NCBI GenBank assembly: GCA_021202635.1
Contig: JAJQCQ010000044.1
Span: 1-64,000 of the forward strand
Direction of reading: 5' to 3'
Length of the DNA: 64,000 bases
DNA from: Lachnospiraceae bacterium
GTDB taxonomy: Bacteria > Bacillota > Clostridia > Lachnospirales > Lachnospiraceae
Part shown: positions 1-8,209 of the stretch, piece by piece
Numbering within the stretch: the first letter of the stretch is position 1
Layout: the number at the start of each line of letters is the position of its first letter
The notes under the pieces: generated by a model
What the model was told of the DNA's origin: nothing
Database searches by the model: none
The model's input: the letters and a program-made list of their open reading frames with translations, nothing else
Made by a program: the position numbers and the translations under genes

Positions 1-680
1 CGTTCTGATGCATTATGCCAGCCCTCGTCCTCGACAAACGTATCATCACAGCGCAAGTTCACATTCATGGGAGCACCGCAGACCGGACAGTGCGGAATCA
101 ATTCCGACGGGATCTTCATGTCCTTCTGTTCAGCTACCATCTGACGGACTGCTTCCTCGTTGTCGTAGGTCTTGTCATGGCAGGGCTTTGAGCATTGCCA
201 CAGACCGTAATCGCCCTGGGTGTAGAACAGTCGTTTTTTATCAAATCCGGCCAGCTGAAACTGATGATCCACGTTGGTGGTCAGCACAAAATAATCCTTG
301 TCCTTCACCAACTCCAGCAGGTCGGTGTAAGGCTTTCCGATGCCAGCCTCATAGCGGTTGACCAGAATGTGGCGTGACCACCACGCCCAGTATTCCTCCA
401 ACGTGTCAAAGGGATAAAACCCGCCGGAGTACATATCGGTAATGCCGTATTTCTGGTGAAAATCCGCAAAGGTCTTTTCGAATCGTTCTCCGCTGTAGCT
501 CATGCCCGCTGACGCGGACAGCCCGGCTCCCGCACCGATTACGATGGCATCTGCCGTTTCAATTTCATTTTTCAGCAATGATATTTTATCCGACGCCCTT
601 GTCTGCGCGGAAAAGGCCTTGCTGACTGTTTCACCGAAGAAGGTTCCGGTAGATTTGTAAGTCGTTGTCCTTAAAGACAT
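1..680 (-). CDS. SIR2 family NAD-dependent protein deacetylase / SirTM-like (partial, runs off left edge)
   Basis: Not in ORF track. Reverse strand reads MSLRTTTYKSTGTFFGETVSKAFSAQTRASDKISLLKNEIETADAIVIGAGAGLSASAGMSYSGERF...VLTTNVDHQFQLAGFDKKRLFYTQGDYGLWQCSKPCHDKTY...HCPVCGAPMNVNLRCDDTFVEDEGWHN. GAGxS, TTNVDHQ and CxxC sirtuin motifs; SD-like GAGGTGAT upstream of ATG. Confidence 0.85.
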   Translation of the reverse strand, partial: MSLRTTTYKSTGTFFGETVSKAFSAQTRASDKISLLKNEIETADAIVIGAGAGLSASAGMSYSGERFEKTFADFHQKYGITDMYSGGFYPFDTLEEYWAWWSRHILVNRYEAGIGKPYTDLLELVKDKDYFVLTTNVDHQFQLAGFDKKRLFYTQGDYGLWQCSKPCHDKTYDNEEAVRQMVAEQKDMKIPSELIPHCPVCGAPMNVNLRCDDTFVEDEGWHNASE

Positions 681-1440
681 TGAAGATCACCTCGATTTCG
701 CTATGAGTCTGTTCTTTATATTCTTTTACCGTCCTGACCGCGATCTCTGCCGCCCTTTCATTCGGAAAATGAAATTCTCCGGTGGAGATGCAGCAGAAGG
801 CAATACTCCTGATGCCCTTCTGCTCCGCAAGCTCCAGGCAGGAGCGGTAACAGGAAGCAAGCAATTCTTTGTCTCTTACCGTCAGCCGGCCGCTGACAAT
901 CGGCCCGACTGTGTGGATCACATAATCGCAGGGCAGATTAAACGCGGACGTGACTTTTGCAGTCCCGGTTCTGGCTTCCCCCAAATGCAGCAGGCTGCTC
1001 CTTTCCGGTTTCTCCTGCCCCTGTAGAGCCATCATTTCTGCACATGCAGCACGAAGCTGGACGCCAGCATAGGTGTGAATCACATTGTCAATGCAGCCGT
1101 GGTTTGGGCAGAAGCAGCCGAGCATCTGGGAGTTGGCGGCATTCACGATCGCTCCGCAGCGCAGCGTGGTAATGTCACCCTGCCAGAGATACATGCCGTC
1201 CTGCACCGGATTGAGGTCAGCAATATCCGTAATGCCTTTTTGCCGGAGTGCCTCCTGCAAATATTGATCCTGTATTCCCAGAAAATCCGGGCTGACAGGC
1301 TTTGGCATCCGCACATTAAACAGCGCCCGCAGAAGCTGTTTCTGCTGCTGTTCATCGGGTGGGATTTCCATATCCCCGTACTGTTTTTCCTCGGAGAGAA
1401 GCTCTCTGATTAAATAGATTCTGCGCTGATTCTGTGTCAT
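631..1440 (-). CDS. Protein-ADP-ribose hydrolase, zinc-containing macrodomain (SirTM-associated type)
   Basis: Macrodomain motifs GDITTLRCGAIVNAAN and STGEFHFP; Cys/His cluster MLGCFCPNHGCIDNVIH; adjacent to sirtuin. Confidence 0.9.
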   Translation of the reverse strand: MTQNQRRIYLIRELLSEEKQYGDMEIPPDEQQQKQLLRALFNVRMPKPVSPDFLGIQDQYLQEALRQKGITDIADLNPVQDGMYLWQGDITTLRCGAIVNAANSQMLGCFCPNHGCIDNVIHTYAGVQLRAACAEMMALQGQEKPERSSLLHLGEARTGTAKVTSAFNLPCDYVIHTVGPIVSGRLTVRDKELLASCYRSCLELAEQKGIRSIAFCCISTGEFHFPNERAAEIAVRTVKEYKEQTHSEIEVIFNVFKDNDLQIYRNLLR

Positions 1441-1570: not shown

Positions 1571-1610
1571 GCACAAAAAAGTGCCATAGTTACCAGTCGG
1601 AAACTATGGC
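1571..1610 (-). terminator. Rho-independent terminator of the VWA/MoxR operon
   Basis: GCCATAGTT/AACTATGGC stem followed on the minus strand by ACTTTTTT. Confidence 0.65.
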
Positions 1611-1662
1611 TGATTCTGATTATAAGTAAGATTTCTCCGTGAAAGCAGGAAAATAGAAAGCC

Positions 1663-1806
1663 CTACAAAATATTCCTCTTTTTAAAGATTAAAAGACAGA
1701 TGACCAGCACAACCAGGCTGACCAGAATCACAACCGGAAAGAACTGTATATAGAAGGGAAAAAACAACTTTTTTTCCTGTAACGGTTCTGTACTGTTGCG
1801 TTTCAC
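1663..1806 (-). CDS. Small single-pass membrane peptide (47 aa)
   Basis: GTG-start ORF MKRNSTEPLQEKKLFFPFYIQFFPVVILVSLVVLVICLLIFKKRNIL; AGGAAAAC just upstream; starts 8 nt after the stop of the MoxR ATPase; absent from ORF track. Confidence 0.6.
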   Translation of the reverse strand: MKRNSTEPLQEKKLFFPFYIQFFPVVILVSLVVLVICLLIFKKRNIL

Positions 1807-1813
1807 GTTTTCC

Positions 1814-3337
1814 TTATTCTTCCATCAGTTCCTGAATTTCCGCACTAAGCCGTTCTCTCTGATCATAAGTCAGAAGCTCCTGATTGTATCGGAAATAGGA
1901 TTCGCTGCCCCACTGCTCGATGAATTCCAGGCTGTCCATCCCGGTCGTGAGCTCCGTCACAAACAACACCATTTCCTGCGTATTTCCCCATACCTTTTCG
2001 ATAAAAGAGAAGACATGCTCCAGCCTGGCCGCGAGATTTTTCGCATTTTTTTCATGCTGTTTGACTTCTTTATCGAATCGCTTTTTGATTTTTACAAAGC
2101 CATCCGTTTTCGTCTCTCCGGCGTATTGCTCATATTCTTCCAATATTTGAATTGCCAGAAGATATTCGCTCCTTATCTGCGCTGTAATACTGTTCGCCGC
2201 AGTTTGTTCTTCCAGGTGAATACGCAGTTTCTGCGCTTCGTCTTCCAGTAAACTTACCAGATATCCTGTATCGACAAAACCGGAAGTTTGTTTTTCTTTA
2301 TCCAGCTTTTTCACTGTACGCAAGGCCTTTACCACCAAAAGGAGACTGCGGTTCCGGCTCACAGACGCTCGAAAGCCATCATTCAGCCGACCAAGGAGCA
2401 GTCCAAGAATGGAAAAGCGCTCGTCCATCCTGGCTTCTTTCGCCCGTCTGGAAATCTCATCCGTGATCCTGCCATCCAGGATATCCTCAATCTGATAGTC
2501 AGACTGGTATTTTTTATAAAGCTGGTAATAGACATGAAACTTTCTCGCAATCTCGTCATCTGCAAGATACTGCCCGATCAGGCCTTTGTCTACCTGGAAG
2601 CCCTTTTTCTCGTAAATACGCATCGCGGTCGACAAATCTTCCCAGCCTCTGGCTGTCACATAGCGGGTGCCGTCCACGGATTCCTGAATGGAGTAAAACC
2701 ACTGCCGATTGAGTTCCAGAAACGCAATGACCGCATCATGTACCCCCTGGTGATACGCATACTGCTTCCACACGCCGAAATCCCCTGTGACATCAATACG
2801 CCTTAAGCGGTCCATCGTTGCCACATCAAACTCCTTTACGGATTTGTTATACTGCGGAGGATTCCCCGCTGTCACTACTACCCAGCCTCTGGGAATCTGC
2901 CGGTTCCCAAAGATTTTGTACTGCAGAAAAAGAAGCATTGCGGGTGCAAGCGTCTCAGAAACACAATTAATTTCATCCAGGAAAAGAATCCCCTCTCTTT
3001 TCCCGGATGCCTCCATCACCTGATAAATGGCAGCAATGATCTCACTCATGGTATATTCTGATACAGAAAAGCTTTTCCCATCATATTCCTTCGACTCGAT
3101 CACCGGAAGTCCCAGAGCACTCTGCCTGGTGTGATGAGTCATGGAATAAGAAACCAGCGCTATATCCAGTTCTGAGGCAATCTGTTCCATAATCGCCGTT
3201 TTGCCAATCCCTGGCGCTCCCACCATAAAAATCGGGCGCTGCTTTGAAACAGGGATCGTATACTCCCCAAACTCATTCTTATCCAGATACACCTCGACGG
3301 CCCGCCGGATTTCTTCTTTTGCTTCTTTAATGTTCAT
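1814..3337 (-). CDS. MoxR-like AAA+ ATPase
   Basis: Walker A GAPGIGKTA, Walker B ILFLDEIN, AAA_5/MoxR-like layout. Confidence 0.85.
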   Translation of the reverse strand: MNIKEAKEEIRRAVEVYLDKNEFGEYTIPVSKQRPIFMVGAPGIGKTAIMEQIASELDIALVSYSMTHHTRQSALGLPVIESKEYDGKSFSVSEYTMSEIIAAIYQVMEASGKREGILFLDEINCVSETLAPAMLLFLQYKIFGNRQIPRGWVVVTAGNPPQYNKSVKEFDVATMDRLRRIDVTGDFGVWKQYAYHQGVHDAVIAFLELNRQWFYSIQESVDGTRYVTARGWEDLSTAMRIYEKKGFQVDKGLIGQYLADDEIARKFHVYYQLYKKYQSDYQIEDILDGRITDEISRRAKEARMDERFSILGLLLGRLNDGFRASVSRNRSLLLVVKALRTVKKLDKEKQTSGFVDTGYLVSLLEDEAQKLRIHLEEQTAANSITAQIRSEYLLAIQILEEYEQYAGETKTDGFVKIKKRFDKEVKQHEKNAKNLAARLEHVFSFIEKVWGNTQEMVLFVTELTTGMDSLEFIEQWGSESYFRYNQELLTYDQRERLSAEIQELMEE

Positions 3338-3476
3338 TTTCGTCTCCGTTTTCTATTCTGTTAATCCGTTCCCTTTTTATATTCTCCAATCCACGCTTAA
3401 CCATTTAACAATTGTCTCTACGCTCTGCTTGGGCAACAAATGCCATATTTGAAGCGTAGGATTCTTCTCCAACCCT

Positions 3477-4919
3477 CTAGCAACAGTCAGAATCCAGATA
3501 CATCCGCATCGCCCATGGCGGAACCTGCACCTGATCCTCTCTGTCCAGAAACACAAAAGCCGTCCTGTATTTCGGTGGTCGTCCAGGGAATACTCCATAT
3601 CCATCCGTGAAGTAGATCAATCCGCGCAAATCCCGAAAAGTCTTTTTTGCGCAGAGCTCATCCACATACGCAAAGACCGGACGAAAATCTGTCCCTCCCA
3701 GTCCCTTTATTTCCAGATGTTCGGTATAAGATTCCAGGTCATCCAGGCTTTCAATCACCACATCATCCTGGATCACACAGTCACACTGAATCAAATGAAT
3801 CACGACTTTCCTGGTAAAACTCTCTGTGCTTTTCAGAATATTGTAGGTTTTATTCAAAAAGCACTGTACCAGCTCGCCGCTGCAGGAACCGGAAGTATCT
3901 ATGGCAATCACAAAGTCGCGAACCAGGTACTCTTCCTTGTATTCCAGCGGCTCAATCAGTACGATTCGTCCCAGCTGATTCAGGCCGTACAGATAATAGA
4001 GATAGTCAAATTCATCCGGATTCAGCTTCATACATTCTTCCAAAACAGCGAACTTTTTCAGGAAATCCGCATAATCATACGTCTCCCGCGTCAACCGCTG
4101 CAAGGTCTGTACCATGCAGCCCGGCAGATCGCCCCGTGATTTTTCAAAGCTCTGTGCACGCAGCATCACATTTTCCGCGATCTCGTTCCAGTCCTCGCTG
4201 AGCTGTGTCTCTGACTCGGATTCCATACCTGTACCGAAGCCATTTCCCGGCTCCTGATACAATTTCTCCGCGGTAGATTCAGCATCCGTGTCAGCAGACA
4301 TCTTAGCCTTCGTCCGTTCTCCGCTGGATGTCTGCTCTTTCTCTGAATTCTGTCGTGGCCTTTTATCTGATGCCTCCCGATAATTCCAGAAGGTATGATC
4401 ATCCCTGGCAAACAATTCCCTTAATTCTTCTAAATTCAGGCCAAAATTCTTCTCTAACCTGTCCTCTTTCAGCATCAGATATCTCGCGATATGCACAGCG
4501 GACATCAGCGGTACTTCCTTTTTTAGACGCGCCGCGATAGCAAAGCATTGCGCCGGTATTTCACGGATCATCTGCGGCAGCAATAATTCTTCAATCACAT
4601 CTGTCACTGCAATATCCGCCGCCAGATCCCAATACTGCCTGTCATAGCCTTTGGCCTGTAATGGATGCTGGTAGAGACAGTGAAATATCGTATGCAGGTA
4701 ATCACAGTCCACTGCATCCGGCGACTGCAAATACCGCTGCAGCAGAAAATCTGCACTATAAAAGATTTTCTGACTGTCACTGCCGATCGTTGTGTTTTCC
4801 CGTTCCTCTGGTCTCAGGTAAAAAATCGCGTGTTCCAGATACCGAAGCTGAAAATAGGTCTGATTCCGGCAGGATTCTAATACCTCAGCTGCGATCTTCC
4901 CGGCTTTTTTCTTTTCCAT
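3477..4919 (-). CDS. VWA-like domain protein (DUF2201-type putative metallopeptidase-like N-terminus)
   Basis: C-terminal VWA MIDAS-like motif FVIAIDTSGSCSGE, GGTDFRPVF and YFTDGYG; N-terminal metallopeptidase-like region. Confidence 0.75.
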   Translation of the reverse strand: MEKKKAGKIAAEVLESCRNQTYFQLRYLEHAIFYLRPEERENTTIGSDSQKIFYSADFLLQRYLQSPDAVDCDYLHTIFHCLYQHPLQAKGYDRQYWDLAADIAVTDVIEELLLPQMIREIPAQCFAIAARLKKEVPLMSAVHIARYLMLKEDRLEKNFGLNLEELRELFARDDHTFWNYREASDKRPRQNSEKEQTSSGERTKAKMSADTDAESTAEKLYQEPGNGFGTGMESESETQLSEDWNEIAENVMLRAQSFEKSRGDLPGCMVQTLQRLTRETYDYADFLKKFAVLEECMKLNPDEFDYLYYLYGLNQLGRIVLIEPLEYKEEYLVRDFVIAIDTSGSCSGELVQCFLNKTYNILKSTESFTRKVVIHLIQCDCVIQDDVVIESLDDLESYTEHLEIKGLGGTDFRPVFAYVDELCAKKTFRDLRGLIYFTDGYGVFPGRPPKYRTAFVFLDREDQVQVPPWAMRMYLDSDCC

Positions 4920-4997
4920 CCGTTTTTCTCACATCCCTGTCTTACTTTTCATCGTCTCAAGCCGCGTACAGATAAGCGCAAGATTCTTCTGTTTTCC

Positions 4998-6895
4998 TCA
5001 TAATCGAAATCCTGCCCGCTTTTTTTCCTTCTTGTTCTGCATCTCCATAATGTAAGCAGAGCAAACGGTCATGCCTTTCTGGTTGCTGAGTTTAAGCAGC
5101 TTCACAAGTGATTCCGCTGACAGGTAATCCATCTTCAGGAAATCCAAAAATTCTTTTTCCTTTCCATCCTCCAGAAGTCCCGCGCCAATCTTGCAGGACA
5201 TCCGGCGAATATACTCTGTATAGACATTTTCTTCTCCCGCCCGGTACCGCAGGATTCCCCGTCTGGCAAACTCCAGTTTTTCTTCGGAATTACTGATTTT
5301 ATCCAGGCATTCGTCGTATTCCTCGTAATCAATTTGCTCGCTGTTCCAGGCCATATCCAGGTGGTAAGCCGCACTCCTTGTCAGGCTTCCCGGAATCAGC
5401 AGTTCTTCACACCGCTCACTTTTCTTATGTAAAACAGTCACCTCACAGCGGGTCCATACTACATTCGCGCTCTTGTCTTTCATATCCGGCTCCACTGCAT
5501 TCACAGCACTAACCAGACCTTTTGCGCTTCCCTCATAGGCATGAATATGATTTACATAAAACAGGGCTCCCTTTCCGACTCGTTTTACGGATTCCGGAAG
5601 CTTTATTTCTTTCAAATATTTTGCCATCAGAGCATACTCCCCGATCTGCTGCAAGCGGGAATGCAAAGTGATCTCTTTTAATCCGCTTTTATAAAACGCA
5701 AAACTGCCAAGATACGTCAGGCTTTCCGGCATCTCGATCTGCTCCAGACTGCCGCAGGCTTCAAAAACGCCTCCCTTTTGATAGGCGTTCGAGTCCGGAA
5801 TTTCCCGTATATTCGGTGAGAACTGAACAGTCTCCAGTGATTCGCACGCATAGAAGGCTCTGGTACCAAGTGAGCAGACACTCCCCGGCATAACAATCTC
5901 TTTCAGATATTTCTGGGACGCAAAGGCAGACTCCTCAATCTTCTGCACGCCGTCCGGAATCACATAACGTCTATCCCTCTTCGAACTCGGATAATACACC
6001 AGCTTCTTTCCGTCAGCGGAGAAAATCACACCGTCTCTGGTCTGAAACCGCTTATGTCCCGGAGCAATAGATATTTCTTCCAGACTTTCCAGTTTTCTTA
6101 AAGTGCGCAGATTGATATTTGCCTGTGCAGACGTGATCTCCAGCGAGCGACAGCATTCTGCATGATTCATCTCCGTGATAACTGTCAGATTCGGCAAAAA
6201 AGGACTGATGATCTTTCTCACCTGACAGCCCCAGTTAAAAAGTCCGGCATGAATCCGGCGTACCATCCTGGGAATTTCCAGGCATTCTGCCTTCGGATCA
6301 ATCTTATACAGCATATCCCAATCACGATCGGATAAACCGCCCCATCCAGCCAAACTGAACCGTCGAATGCTTTCAGGTCTATATCGATCTCTTCTTCCGG
6401 GAAGCAAATCTGCCTGTACTGCGTCCCGGAAAACGCCTTTGCGGAAATTCCCTTCACATCGTTCGGGATCTCAATTACGTCACCTCTGCATACCGGGCAA
6501 TATTTCAGCCACTTTTCCTTTTTCCCATAATAATTCCCCGATTCCTTCGCGAAAATCAGGCGGCCATCCGTCGAAAATATCTCATTCTCCTCATCGATCT
6601 CCACCCGTTCCAGCTTTGGAAAAAGATCATTGCGAATGCGAAACTCTGTAATTCCTTTTGGAATGTGAAGAACACGCACCTCCGGGTAAGATCGCTCCTT
6701 CGCATGTCTGTCTATCGGAAGAACCCTGTCATCTCTCATATCCAGGCTATCCACCCGGCCGCTTCCATATGTATCCGGAAGCCACAGGTCAGACGATTCT
6801 GTCCTGATATCTGTGATCTGATAGTGCGTCCCTTTGCGGGACCAGGATTGCACTTCTTCCAGTTTGAAGTGACTGCCTCTATATTCATACATCAT
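4998..6895 (-). pseudogene. BspA-type leucine-rich-repeat (LRR_5) protein, split by a frameshift
   Basis: Two overlapping ORFs (6895..6218 and 6407..4998) join at about 6320; LRR_5-like repeats such as LEEISIAPGHKRFQTRDGVIFSADGKKLVYYPSSKRDRRYVIPDGVQKIEESAFASQKYLKEIVMP. Confidence 0.7.
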
Positions 6896-6946
6896 CTTTT
6901 TTCCTTTACAGTACTATGTACCTTCTTGTTTTTACTTGTAAAATAG

Positions 6947-6975
6947 ATTATATACTATTAGTATATATATTTCAA
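6947..6975 (-). promoter_or_regulatory. Promoter of LRR-VWA-MoxR operon with palindromic operator in the spacer
   Basis: Minus strand TTGAAA (6975-6970), 17 nt, TATAAT (6952-6947); 19-bp palindrome TATATACTA-T-TAGTATATA at 6949-6967. Confidence 0.6.
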
Positions 6976-7085
6976 GCTTTTTTTATAGTATATTTTAAAG
7001 AGCAGGAAATCATCCAAAAAGACCGTAAGAATAGTACGAGAATGATCACTATTCCAGTTTACTGGAAACAACCGGAGGAAAAACC

Positions 7086-7415
7086 ATGACGCAGAACGAT
7101 TATGAAAACCTTGGAGGAAAAATCAAAGGACTTCGCACACAGATGAATCTGACCCAGGCCGAAGTCGCATCCGCCCTGGAAGTCACACCAGGCTATATCA
7201 GCAACGTAGAAAACAACCGCTCAGCCATGTCCCTGCGCATTTTAATCTACTACGCAAAACTGATGGGCATTTCACTGGATACGCTGATTGGAGAAATAGA
7301 TTCGGAATACAAGCCTGTGGCGCTCGACCGTGAGATTATGAACGAACTCTCGCAGATGGATACCGATACAAAGGAAAAGGTTTTACAGACCATCCGGCTT
7401 TGGAAAAATGCATGA
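7086..7415 (+). CDS. XRE/Cro family helix-turn-helix regulator
   Basis: HTH_3 pattern GGKIKGLRTQMNLTQAEVASALEVTPGYISNVENNRSAMSL. Confidence 0.9.
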   Translation: MTQNDYENLGGKIKGLRTQMNLTQAEVASALEVTPGYISNVENNRSAMSLRILIYYAKLMGISLDTLIGEIDSEYKPVALDREIMNELSQMDTDTKEKVLQTIRLWKNA

Positions 7416-7462: not shown

Positions 7463-8209
7463 ATGAAAATCATCAAACAACGTCTCAGCATTCTGCTGCT
7501 GGCTCTCGTTCTCGCGGTATCTCCATGCAGTACCATCCTGCCGGAAATCACCACCAGTGTTCAGGCTGCCACCGTGGAAATCAGCGAGACCTCCGCGACA
7601 CTGATCAAGGGTCAGACCTTAAAACTGAAAATCACCGGAACCAGCGATACCGTCACCTGGAAAAGCAGTAAAAAATCCGTTGCAAAGGTAAGCGCAAGCG
7701 GCAAGGTTACTGCTAAGAAAAAGGGAACCGCTACCATTACAGCTACAGTCAATGGCACAAAATACAAATGCAAGATCACAGTAGTGACTCCCGCGATCAG
7801 CGACACGACTCTTTCTCTGACCGTCGGAGACACACAGAAGCTGAAGATCAGCGGAACCACAGAAACCGTAACCTGGACATCCTCCAATAAAAAAATAGCT
7901 TCCGTAAACAAAAACGGGAAAGTCACGGCAAAGAAAGCCGGAACTGTGACGATCACCGCCACGGTTTTGGGAAAAGAATATCCGTGCGTCGTCACCGTAT
8001 CAAAGGCCGCATCGTCGTCCTCTGGTTCATCGTCTTCCGGCTCGGCATCCTCCGGAACCTCATCTTCCGGTTCGACGGTGTACATCACAGAAACCGGTTT
8101 AAAATATCACCGTCTTGGCTGCAGATATTTGTCAGACAGCCAGATCGAAATCGACCGCTCCCTTGCAATCAAAAGCGGTTACACCGCATGCAGTATATGC
8201 AATCCGTAA
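7463..8209 (+). CDS. Secreted bacterial Ig-like (Big_2) protein with C-terminal Cys/His domain
   Basis: Signal peptide; two Big_2 repeats (TLIKGQTLKLKITGTSDTVTWKSS...GKVTAKKKGTATITA); Ser/Gly linker; C-terminal KYHRLGCRYL...YTACSICNP. Confidence 0.85.
   Translation: MKIIKQRLSILLLALVLAVSPCSTILPEITTSVQAATVEISETSATLIKGQTLKLKITGTSDTVTWKSSKKSVAKVSASGKVTAKKKGTATITATVNGTKYKCKITVVTPAISDTTLSLTVGDTQKLKISGTTETVTWTSSNKKIASVNKNGKVTAKKAGTVTITATVLGKEYPCVVTVSKAASSSSGSSSSGSASSGTSSSGSTVYITETGLKYHRLGCRYLSDSQIEIDRSLAIKSGYTACSICNP

What the first reader, a model, noticed from the sequence alone, without database searches (positions are those of the whole stretch)
1663..7415. XRE-linked operon: LRR protein, VWA/DUF2201, MoxR AAA+ ATPase and a 47-aa TM peptide
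All four are on the minus strand, ending in a terminator at 1571-1610 and starting from one promoter at 6947-6975. The MoxR-VWA pairing is a recurrent chaperone/conflict-system theme, here coupled to a BspA-type LRR protein (possible recognition module) and a tiny membrane peptide (possible effector). I do not know this exact combination as a named system; the role assignment is speculative.
Basis: partly seen in the sequence, partly recalled or inferred. Interest (0 to 1): 0.62.

Follow-up and report, generated by a model that had tools for sequence, protein, structure and literature searches.

The report
LRR–VWA–MoxR three-protein chaperone operon
The operon encodes a ring-shaped ATP motor, its metal-binding partner and a leucine-rich-repeat protein that recur side by side across many gut Clostridia, so they very probably form a three-part protein-remodelling machine that we found no description of; the tiny membrane 'toxin' next to it is only a leftover piece of a magnesium-transporter gene.

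Summary
The genes are there, with two corrections. (1) The LRR gene carries one frameshift: GGG where relatives have four bases, at 6317-6319. (2) The 47-aa 'TM peptide' is not part of the system. Residues 24-47 are the last helix of a CorA-type transporter, left by a deletion of about 6-7 kb between 11-bp repeats. The terminator is corA's own.

The core claim, LRR + VWA (DUF2201) + MoxR-clade AAA+, holds. An LRR_5 protein lies in the same operon in 58 of 75 Clostridia loci, against 8 of 233 background ORFs. In an independent class-wide draw it lies within four genes in 14 of 18. All 25 near-complete genomes of the genus encode both the VWA and the LRR C-terminal domain.

The partner protein ends in a shared helical domain and a tail, typically basic-[F/L/Y]-x-[L/I]-COOH. 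The same kind of tail occurs on ankyrin and DUF4132 versions. The VWA keeps an invariant MIDAS, but its 'metallopeptidase' domain has lost the catalytic Glu.

Best reading: a MoxR-vWA ternary chaperone in which the LRR protein is the target-recognising adaptor. A defence role is possible but weakly supported. The window copy looks like a decaying accessory paralogue.

The parts
6218..6895 (-). LRR protein, 5' part: ORF in the original frame, correct to about 6320, then out of frame
   Evidence: residues 1-193 align 67-84% to the start of LRR genes in L034, L035, L036, L158 that read on in one frame; no signal peptide-like N terminus.
4998..6407 (-). LRR protein, 3' part: real coding sequence is about 6317-4998; LRR_5 repeats, linker, helical C-terminal domain (about 5001-5405), tail ...KKRAGFRL
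   Evidence: LRR_5 E=1.6e-30; model with LRR solenoid, low-confidence linker, eight helices and an uncertain tail; dN/dS 0.07-0.15.
6317..6319 (-). Frameshift site: GGG where relatives have four bases
   Evidence: L034, L036 and L158 read ATTGGGGA, L035 ATTGGAGA, window ATTGGGA.
3477..4919 (-). VWA protein: DUF2201_N (pseudo-metallopeptidase, HxxxH without Glu) + linker + VWA with MIDAS D341-T-S-G-S345, T410, D439
   Evidence: PF09967 E=9.8e-12, PF13203 E=2.7e-11; MIDAS invariant in 26/26, HExxH in none; fold matches vWA domains including MDN1-MIDAS.
1814..3337 (-). MoxR-clade AAA+ ATPase, Walker A GAPGIGKT, Walker B ILFLDE
   Evidence: AAA E=1.5e-7, AAA_5 E=6.2e-7; motifs conserved in 66 aligned sequences; dN/dS about 0.05.
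6947..6975 (-). Predicted promoter of the operon (TTGAAA-17-TATAAT); the same hexamer layout lies upstream in L034-L036
   Evidence: consensus match only.
6951..6965 (.). Perfect palindrome TATACTA-N-TAGTATA overlapping the -10 region; candidate XRE operator
   Evidence: only site in the window, 0.01 expected; identical in L158, one mismatch in L157, imperfect in L034-L036.
7086..7415 (+). Divergent XRE-family regulator gene
   Evidence: HTH_3 E=2.7e-11; 87-89% in L035/L036, 98% in L157/L158, not found beside the operon in L034.
1663..1806 (-). 47-aa TM ORF: NOT a component; corA 3'-end remnant fused to intergenic DNA
   Evidence: C-terminal segment 70-80% identical to the best CorA C termini; junction at 1728-1738 in an 11-bp repeat (TCACAACCGGA).
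1571..1610 (-). Intrinsic terminator, inherited from corA
   Evidence: 9-bp stem, z -2.8; 88% identical over 164 bp to corA 3' end plus terminator in G030.

Best explanation
The operon encodes a three-component MoxR-vWA chaperone. The AAA+ protein forms the ATP-driven ring. The VWA protein is its co-chaperone and uses its MIDAS metal site to grip an acidic or carboxylate group. The cytoplasmic LRR protein is the adaptor: its LRR solenoid recognises a target, and its helical C-terminal domain plus tail dock it on the VWA-ring pair, so that ATP hydrolysis remodels the target or the complex. Shown here: gene association, intact MIDAS and Walker motifs, loss of the peptidase Glu, a shared C-terminal domain and tail, and interchange of N-terminal repeat modules. 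Inferred: hexamer formation, tail-MIDAS contact, adaptor role. Unknown: the target. The window copy is an accessory paralogue, possibly XRE-controlled, with a frameshifted LRR gene, in a region where this operon is repeatedly lost.
For: Adjacency: LRR_5 in the operon within 3 genes in 58/75 loci vs 8/233 background ORFs (Fisher p about 3e-38, ignoring relatedness); 14/18 within four genes in an independent class-wide draw. Genus: both domains in 25/25 near-complete genomes. Shared C-terminal domain and tail; tail motif in 17/30 proteins with this domain vs 17/464 other ORFs. Same kind of tail on ankyrin (L055, L065) and DUF4132 (L061) partners. MIDAS invariant, HExxH absent. All three genes under purifying selection. 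NorQ/NorD precedent: MIDAS binds acidic residues of the target, VWA sits on the MoxR ring (PMC9976466).
Against: No interaction, ATPase or phenotype data. Many LRR_5 proteins in these operons, including tandem copies, lack the C-terminal domain and tail, so the tail is not universal. The core pair in the window's own genome (C7) has its likely LRR partner on another contig. C45 shows a third VWA-MoxR pair without an adjacent LRR. The LRR could be the substrate instead of the adaptor.
Confidence: 0.6

Rival explanations
1. A defence or conflict system: the LRR protein senses an invader and the MoxR-VWA pair sets the threshold, as proposed for VMAP/iSTAND ternary systems.
For: Architecture like the ternary systems of PMC7159879; accessory copies gained and lost; one copy (L040) with AbiH-like, HEPN_Swt1, LmuB-like and BrxL genes.
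Against: No effector domain on the VWA and no recurrent effector gene; core in the genus; no plasmid match over most of the VWA; no PADLOC model matched a VWA or LRR protein.
Confidence: 0.2
2. The LRR protein is the client: a dedicated chaperone pair folds, assembles or releases an LRR protein, whose tail is its recognition tag.
For: Tail and C-terminal domain follow the pair, while repeats vary in type and number; tandem LRR genes.
Against: Repeat proteins rarely need a dedicated unfoldase (general knowledge); the client reading explains less simply why the same pair is kept with ankyrin and DUF4132 partners.
Confidence: 0.18
3. One reading: membrane peptide effector held in check by the LRR-VWA-MoxR proteins.
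For: A GTG ORF with a plausible ribosome-binding site and one TM helix starts 7 bases after MoxR.
Against: The ORF is a corA 3'-end remnant at a deletion junction and is absent beside the relatives' operons.
Confidence: 0.02

Closest known systems
MoxR-vWA ternary conflict systems (VMAP, iSTAND, FtsH, beta-propeller; Kaur et al. 2020, PMC7159879; iSTAND2/TERNS3, PMC8195603)
   Same: MoxR-clade AAA+ plus vWA plus a third, system-defining protein in one operon; MIDAS intact.
   Different: Third protein is LRR_5/ankyrin/DUF4132 with a shared C-terminal tail; no effector domains on the vWA; DUF2201 vWA; found here in Clostridia, not mainly multicellular bacteria. Term searches of these papers showed no LRR-defined MoxR-vWA class.
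RavA-ViaA, NorQ-NorD, CbbQ-CbbO
   Same: Two-part MoxR/VWA chaperone core; N-terminal domain ahead of the VWA; target gripped by MIDAS (NorD, PMC9976466).
   Different: No LRR partner known to me; sequence far below the ViaA equivalog cut-off (19.9 vs 500 bits).
E. coli yehI-yehL-yehM-yehP locus (DUF4132, MoxR, VWA)
   Same: MoxR + VWA beside a DUF4132 protein; some partners here are LRR_5-DUF4132 (L040, L060) or DUF4132 alone (L061).
   Different: YehP is VWA_CoxE, not DUF2201; profile comparison of the VWAs gave probability 0.2, and MoxR vs YehL only a 30-residue match. The window LRR has no DUF4132.
BspA-type LRR_5 proteins
   Same: Same repeat and fold (PDB 4gt6, 4h09).
   Different: Several solved ones are described as cell-surface proteins; these lack a signal peptide-like N terminus (1 of 58 exceeds the hydrophobicity threshold) and carry the C-terminal domain.

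Membership tests
MoxR-clade AAA+ | AAA+ core with Walker A and B | tested here: met
MoxR-clade AAA+ | Pfam AAA_3 (MoxR) or bpMoxR above cut-off | tested here: not met
   bpMoxR 21.2 vs 27 bits, AAA_3 not listed; AAA_3 hits in this genome are other loci. AAA_5 passes.
MoxR-clade AAA+ | Helix-2 insert | not tested
   MoxR structure not predicted.
VWA co-chaperone | Complete MIDAS (DxSxS, T, D) | tested here: met
   invariant in 26 sequences.
DUF2201_N metallopeptidase | HExxH catalytic motif | tested here: not met
   position after the first His is never Glu in 26 aligned rows nor in the 63 of 75 proteins where the motif was found.
MoxR-vWA ternary system (general scheme) | MoxR + vWA + one conserved third protein in an operon | tested here: met
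VMAP / iSTAND ternary systems | VMAP-C or inactive STAND third component | tested here: not met
   third components matched LRR, ankyrin or DUF4132 families or nothing; a distant STAND-like fold is not excluded.
VMAP / iSTAND ternary systems | Variable effector domain at the vWA C-terminus | tested here: not met
   aligned VWA proteins end at or soon after the VWA domain.
RavA-ViaA | ViaA equivalog model above cut-off | tested here: not met
   19.9 vs 500 bits.
Known anti-phage system | PADLOC model match | tested here: not met
   only weak IetA/mad8 matches around the P-loop; none for VWA or LRR.
Toxin/effector peptide | Conserved small TM ORF beside the operon | tested here: not met

The most novel reading that the evidence does not exclude
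A new class of MoxR-vWA machine, widespread in Clostridia and core to at least this genus, defined by interchangeable repeat-protein adaptors (LRR_5, ankyrin, LRR-DUF4132, DUF4132) that plug into one VWA-MoxR ring through a shared C-terminal domain ending in a short tail, i.e. a bacterial chaperone with swappable recognition subunits.
Probability: 0.45. Interest if true: 0.75.

Novelty: new variant of a known kind. Interest (0 to 1): 0.58.

Why it matters
MoxR-vWA pairs are common, but few have known targets. A third protein with an obvious recognition surface and a conserved docking tail gives a direct handle on target selection: fish with the LRR domain, test the tail against the MIDAS. It would also give a cytoplasmic job to LRR_5 proteins, often filed as surface proteins in gut bacteria. 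No paper in the open-access library searched held both 'DUF2201' and 'MoxR', and none of the other searches turned up this gene trio.

Tried and rejected
TM peptide as effector: rejected as a corA remnant. A programmed frameshift in the LRR gene: rejected, since relatives read through in one frame and no slippery heptamer was seen by eye; one-base mutation or assembly error remains. Active metallopeptidase in DUF2201_N: rejected, no HExxH. Close kinship with E. coli yehL/yehP: not supported. Mobile, plasmid- or phage-borne module: one partial plasmid match; distant DUF2201-VWA relatives in Bacillus phage G and in viral contigs; matches of 30-44% identity on small unannotated faecal 'phage' records, whose neighbours were not examined. 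A loose regular expression for the tail helix was uninformative (background 46/352) and is not used. PDB sequence search found no VWA relative.

Full report
WHAT IS THERE. On the minus strand, 6895 to 1814 holds an LRR_5 gene, a DUF2201-VWA gene and a MoxR-clade AAA+ gene, diverging from an XRE gene at 7086. The promoter match at 6975-6947 is 11/12. The region as a whole has no more promoter-like sites than its shuffles (9 found, 9.0 expected), so this one stands on its position and on the same hexamer layout upstream of L034-L036. Its -10 region overlaps the perfect palindrome TATACTA-N-TAGTATA, the only such site in 64 kb with up to two mismatches (0.01 expected). The palindrome is perfect in L158, one base off in L157 and imperfect in L034-L036. 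An XRE operator is the obvious guess, not a demonstration.

THE LRR GENE IS FRAMESHIFTED. The window has ATTGGGATATG where L034 and L036 have ATTGGGGATATG, L158 ATTGGGGAGATG and L035 ATTGGAGATATG; those four read on in one frame at this point. Both halves still show dN/dS of 0.07-0.17, so the lesion is recent or an assembly error.

THE TM PEPTIDE IS A SCAR. A protein search in the genus found its C-terminal part, 70-80% identical in the best cases, at the end of open frames of about 150-390 aa, among them two places in the same genome. Translated, these proteins end in the CorA-type sequence ...YGMNF...PVVILVSLVVLVICLLIFKKRNIL (the CorA assignment rests on the YGMNF signature, from general knowledge). 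At DNA level window 1574-1737 is 88% identical to the 3' end and terminator of corA in G030. In G030 and G036 the 29-bp segment 1728-1756 lies about 7 and 6 kb from that corA end; the two parental segments share TCACAACCGGA (1728-1738). The simplest history is a deletion between these short repeats, which removed most of corA and left its last helix codons and terminator behind the operon. No counterpart lies behind MoxR in L034-L037.

THE OPERON IS AN ACCESSORY COPY THAT DECAYS. Close orthologues occur in G001, G038, G042 and G026 (in G026 on two contigs) among 46 other same-genus genomes. G014 keeps the LRR gene, the 5' part of VWA and the 3' part of MoxR around an internal deletion; G030 keeps only LRR pieces at a contig end; G036 keeps XRE and the intergenic region but not the three genes. 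The window copy, with its frameshift and adjacent deletion, fits this picture.

THE TRIAD ITSELF IS WIDESPREAD. In 75 with a clear VWA, an LRR_5 protein lies in the same operon within three genes in 58, and most of the 17 others touch a contig or locus end; LRR_5 appears in only 8 of 233 ORFs more than 3 kb away. Gene order varies (VML 17, LVM 15, VLM 7, and tandem LRR genes), which argues against simple inheritance of one block. These 80 were the best matches to the query, so I also drew 293 genomes of the class evenly: 20 (7%) have the VWA, and of 18 fetched, 11 have the LRR gene inside the VWA-MoxR cluster and 14 within four genes. In the window's genus 44/47 genomes have the LRR C-terminal domain and 45/47 the VWA; 25/25 of the near-complete ones have both. 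So the pair keeps an LRR partner in the genome even where the genes are unlinked, as seems to be the case for the C7 pair and the C2 LRR gene of this genome.

ANATOMY. The VWA protein keeps D341-T-S-x-S345, T410 and D439 in 26/26 aligned sequences. Its N-terminal DUF2201_N domain keeps three His and one Asp but never the Glu of HExxH, so it should not be called a peptidase. The VWA model (pLDDT 78) matches vWA folds, including the human MDN1-MIDAS bound to NLE1; the fold scores are modest. The LRR model shows a BspA-type solenoid, a low-confidence linker, eight helices and an uncertain tail (pLDDT 76). The C-terminal domain aligns across 18 proteins, most ending in [KR]-x-[FLY]-x-[LI]-COOH. 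Of 30 complete proteins with this domain, 17 end in [FWYL]-x-[LIF]-type tails against 17 of 464 unrelated ORFs. Loci whose partner is not an LRR protein can still have such a tail: ankyrin proteins in L055 and L065, a DUF4132 protein in L061. LRR_5 and DUF4132 are fused in L040 and L060. The recognition part is swapped and the C-terminal part is kept; that is the main reason for calling it a docking module.

HOW IT PROBABLY WORKS. For NorQ/NorD the MIDAS is thought to bind acidic residues on the target while the VWA domain plugs the MoxR ring (PMC9976466); Kaur et al. propose a similar action for ternary systems (PMC7159879). By analogy, the LRR protein brings a target to the ring and the VWA transmits the pull. 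That the tail itself is the MIDAS ligand is a guess.

DEFENCE OR HOUSEKEEPING? Neighbours are mostly metabolic and transport genes without a recurrent family, and no near-complete genome of the genus lacks the system. One accessory copy (L040) sits with BrxL, AbiH-like, HEPN_Swt1 and LmuB-like genes. I put 0.2 on a conflict role.

LIMITS. ORF calling was mechanical; LRR_5 calls in Python used a home-made profile, checked against Pfam on some two dozen partner proteins. Fisher tests ignore relatedness. Literature searching covered open-access papers only.

Noticed in passing
window 3-1440 (-): Sir2-like protein followed by a macrodomain ADP-ribose hydrolase, a SirTM-macro type pair; the same pair lies on the corA contig in G026 (L160).
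   Followed up: partly
L157 3492-4009: In G036 the XRE gene and intergenic region survive (91% DNA identity) although LRR, VWA and MoxR are gone: an orphan regulator.
   Followed up: partly
L040 1-19001: LRR_5-DUF4132, VWA and MoxR inside a defence island with AbiH-like, HEPN_Swt1, LmuB-like and BrxL genes.
   Followed up: partly
L113, L121, L060, L069, L080: Tandem arrays of several LRR_5 genes in or near the VWA operon; often only one copy, or none, carries the C-terminal tail.
   Followed up: no
own genome G000:C7 and C45 (L042, L043): Two further VWA-MoxR pairs: at C7 the two genes are split by an intervening gene, at C45 the VWA lacks most of its N-terminal domain.
   Followed up: partly
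window 7463-8209 (+): Secreted-looking protein with two Big_2 Ig-like domains directly after the XRE gene; also next to it in G014 (L158).
   Followed up: no
phage records H9/H10 (Bacillus phage G): Distant DUF2201-type VWA relative in a jumbo phage.
   Followed up: no
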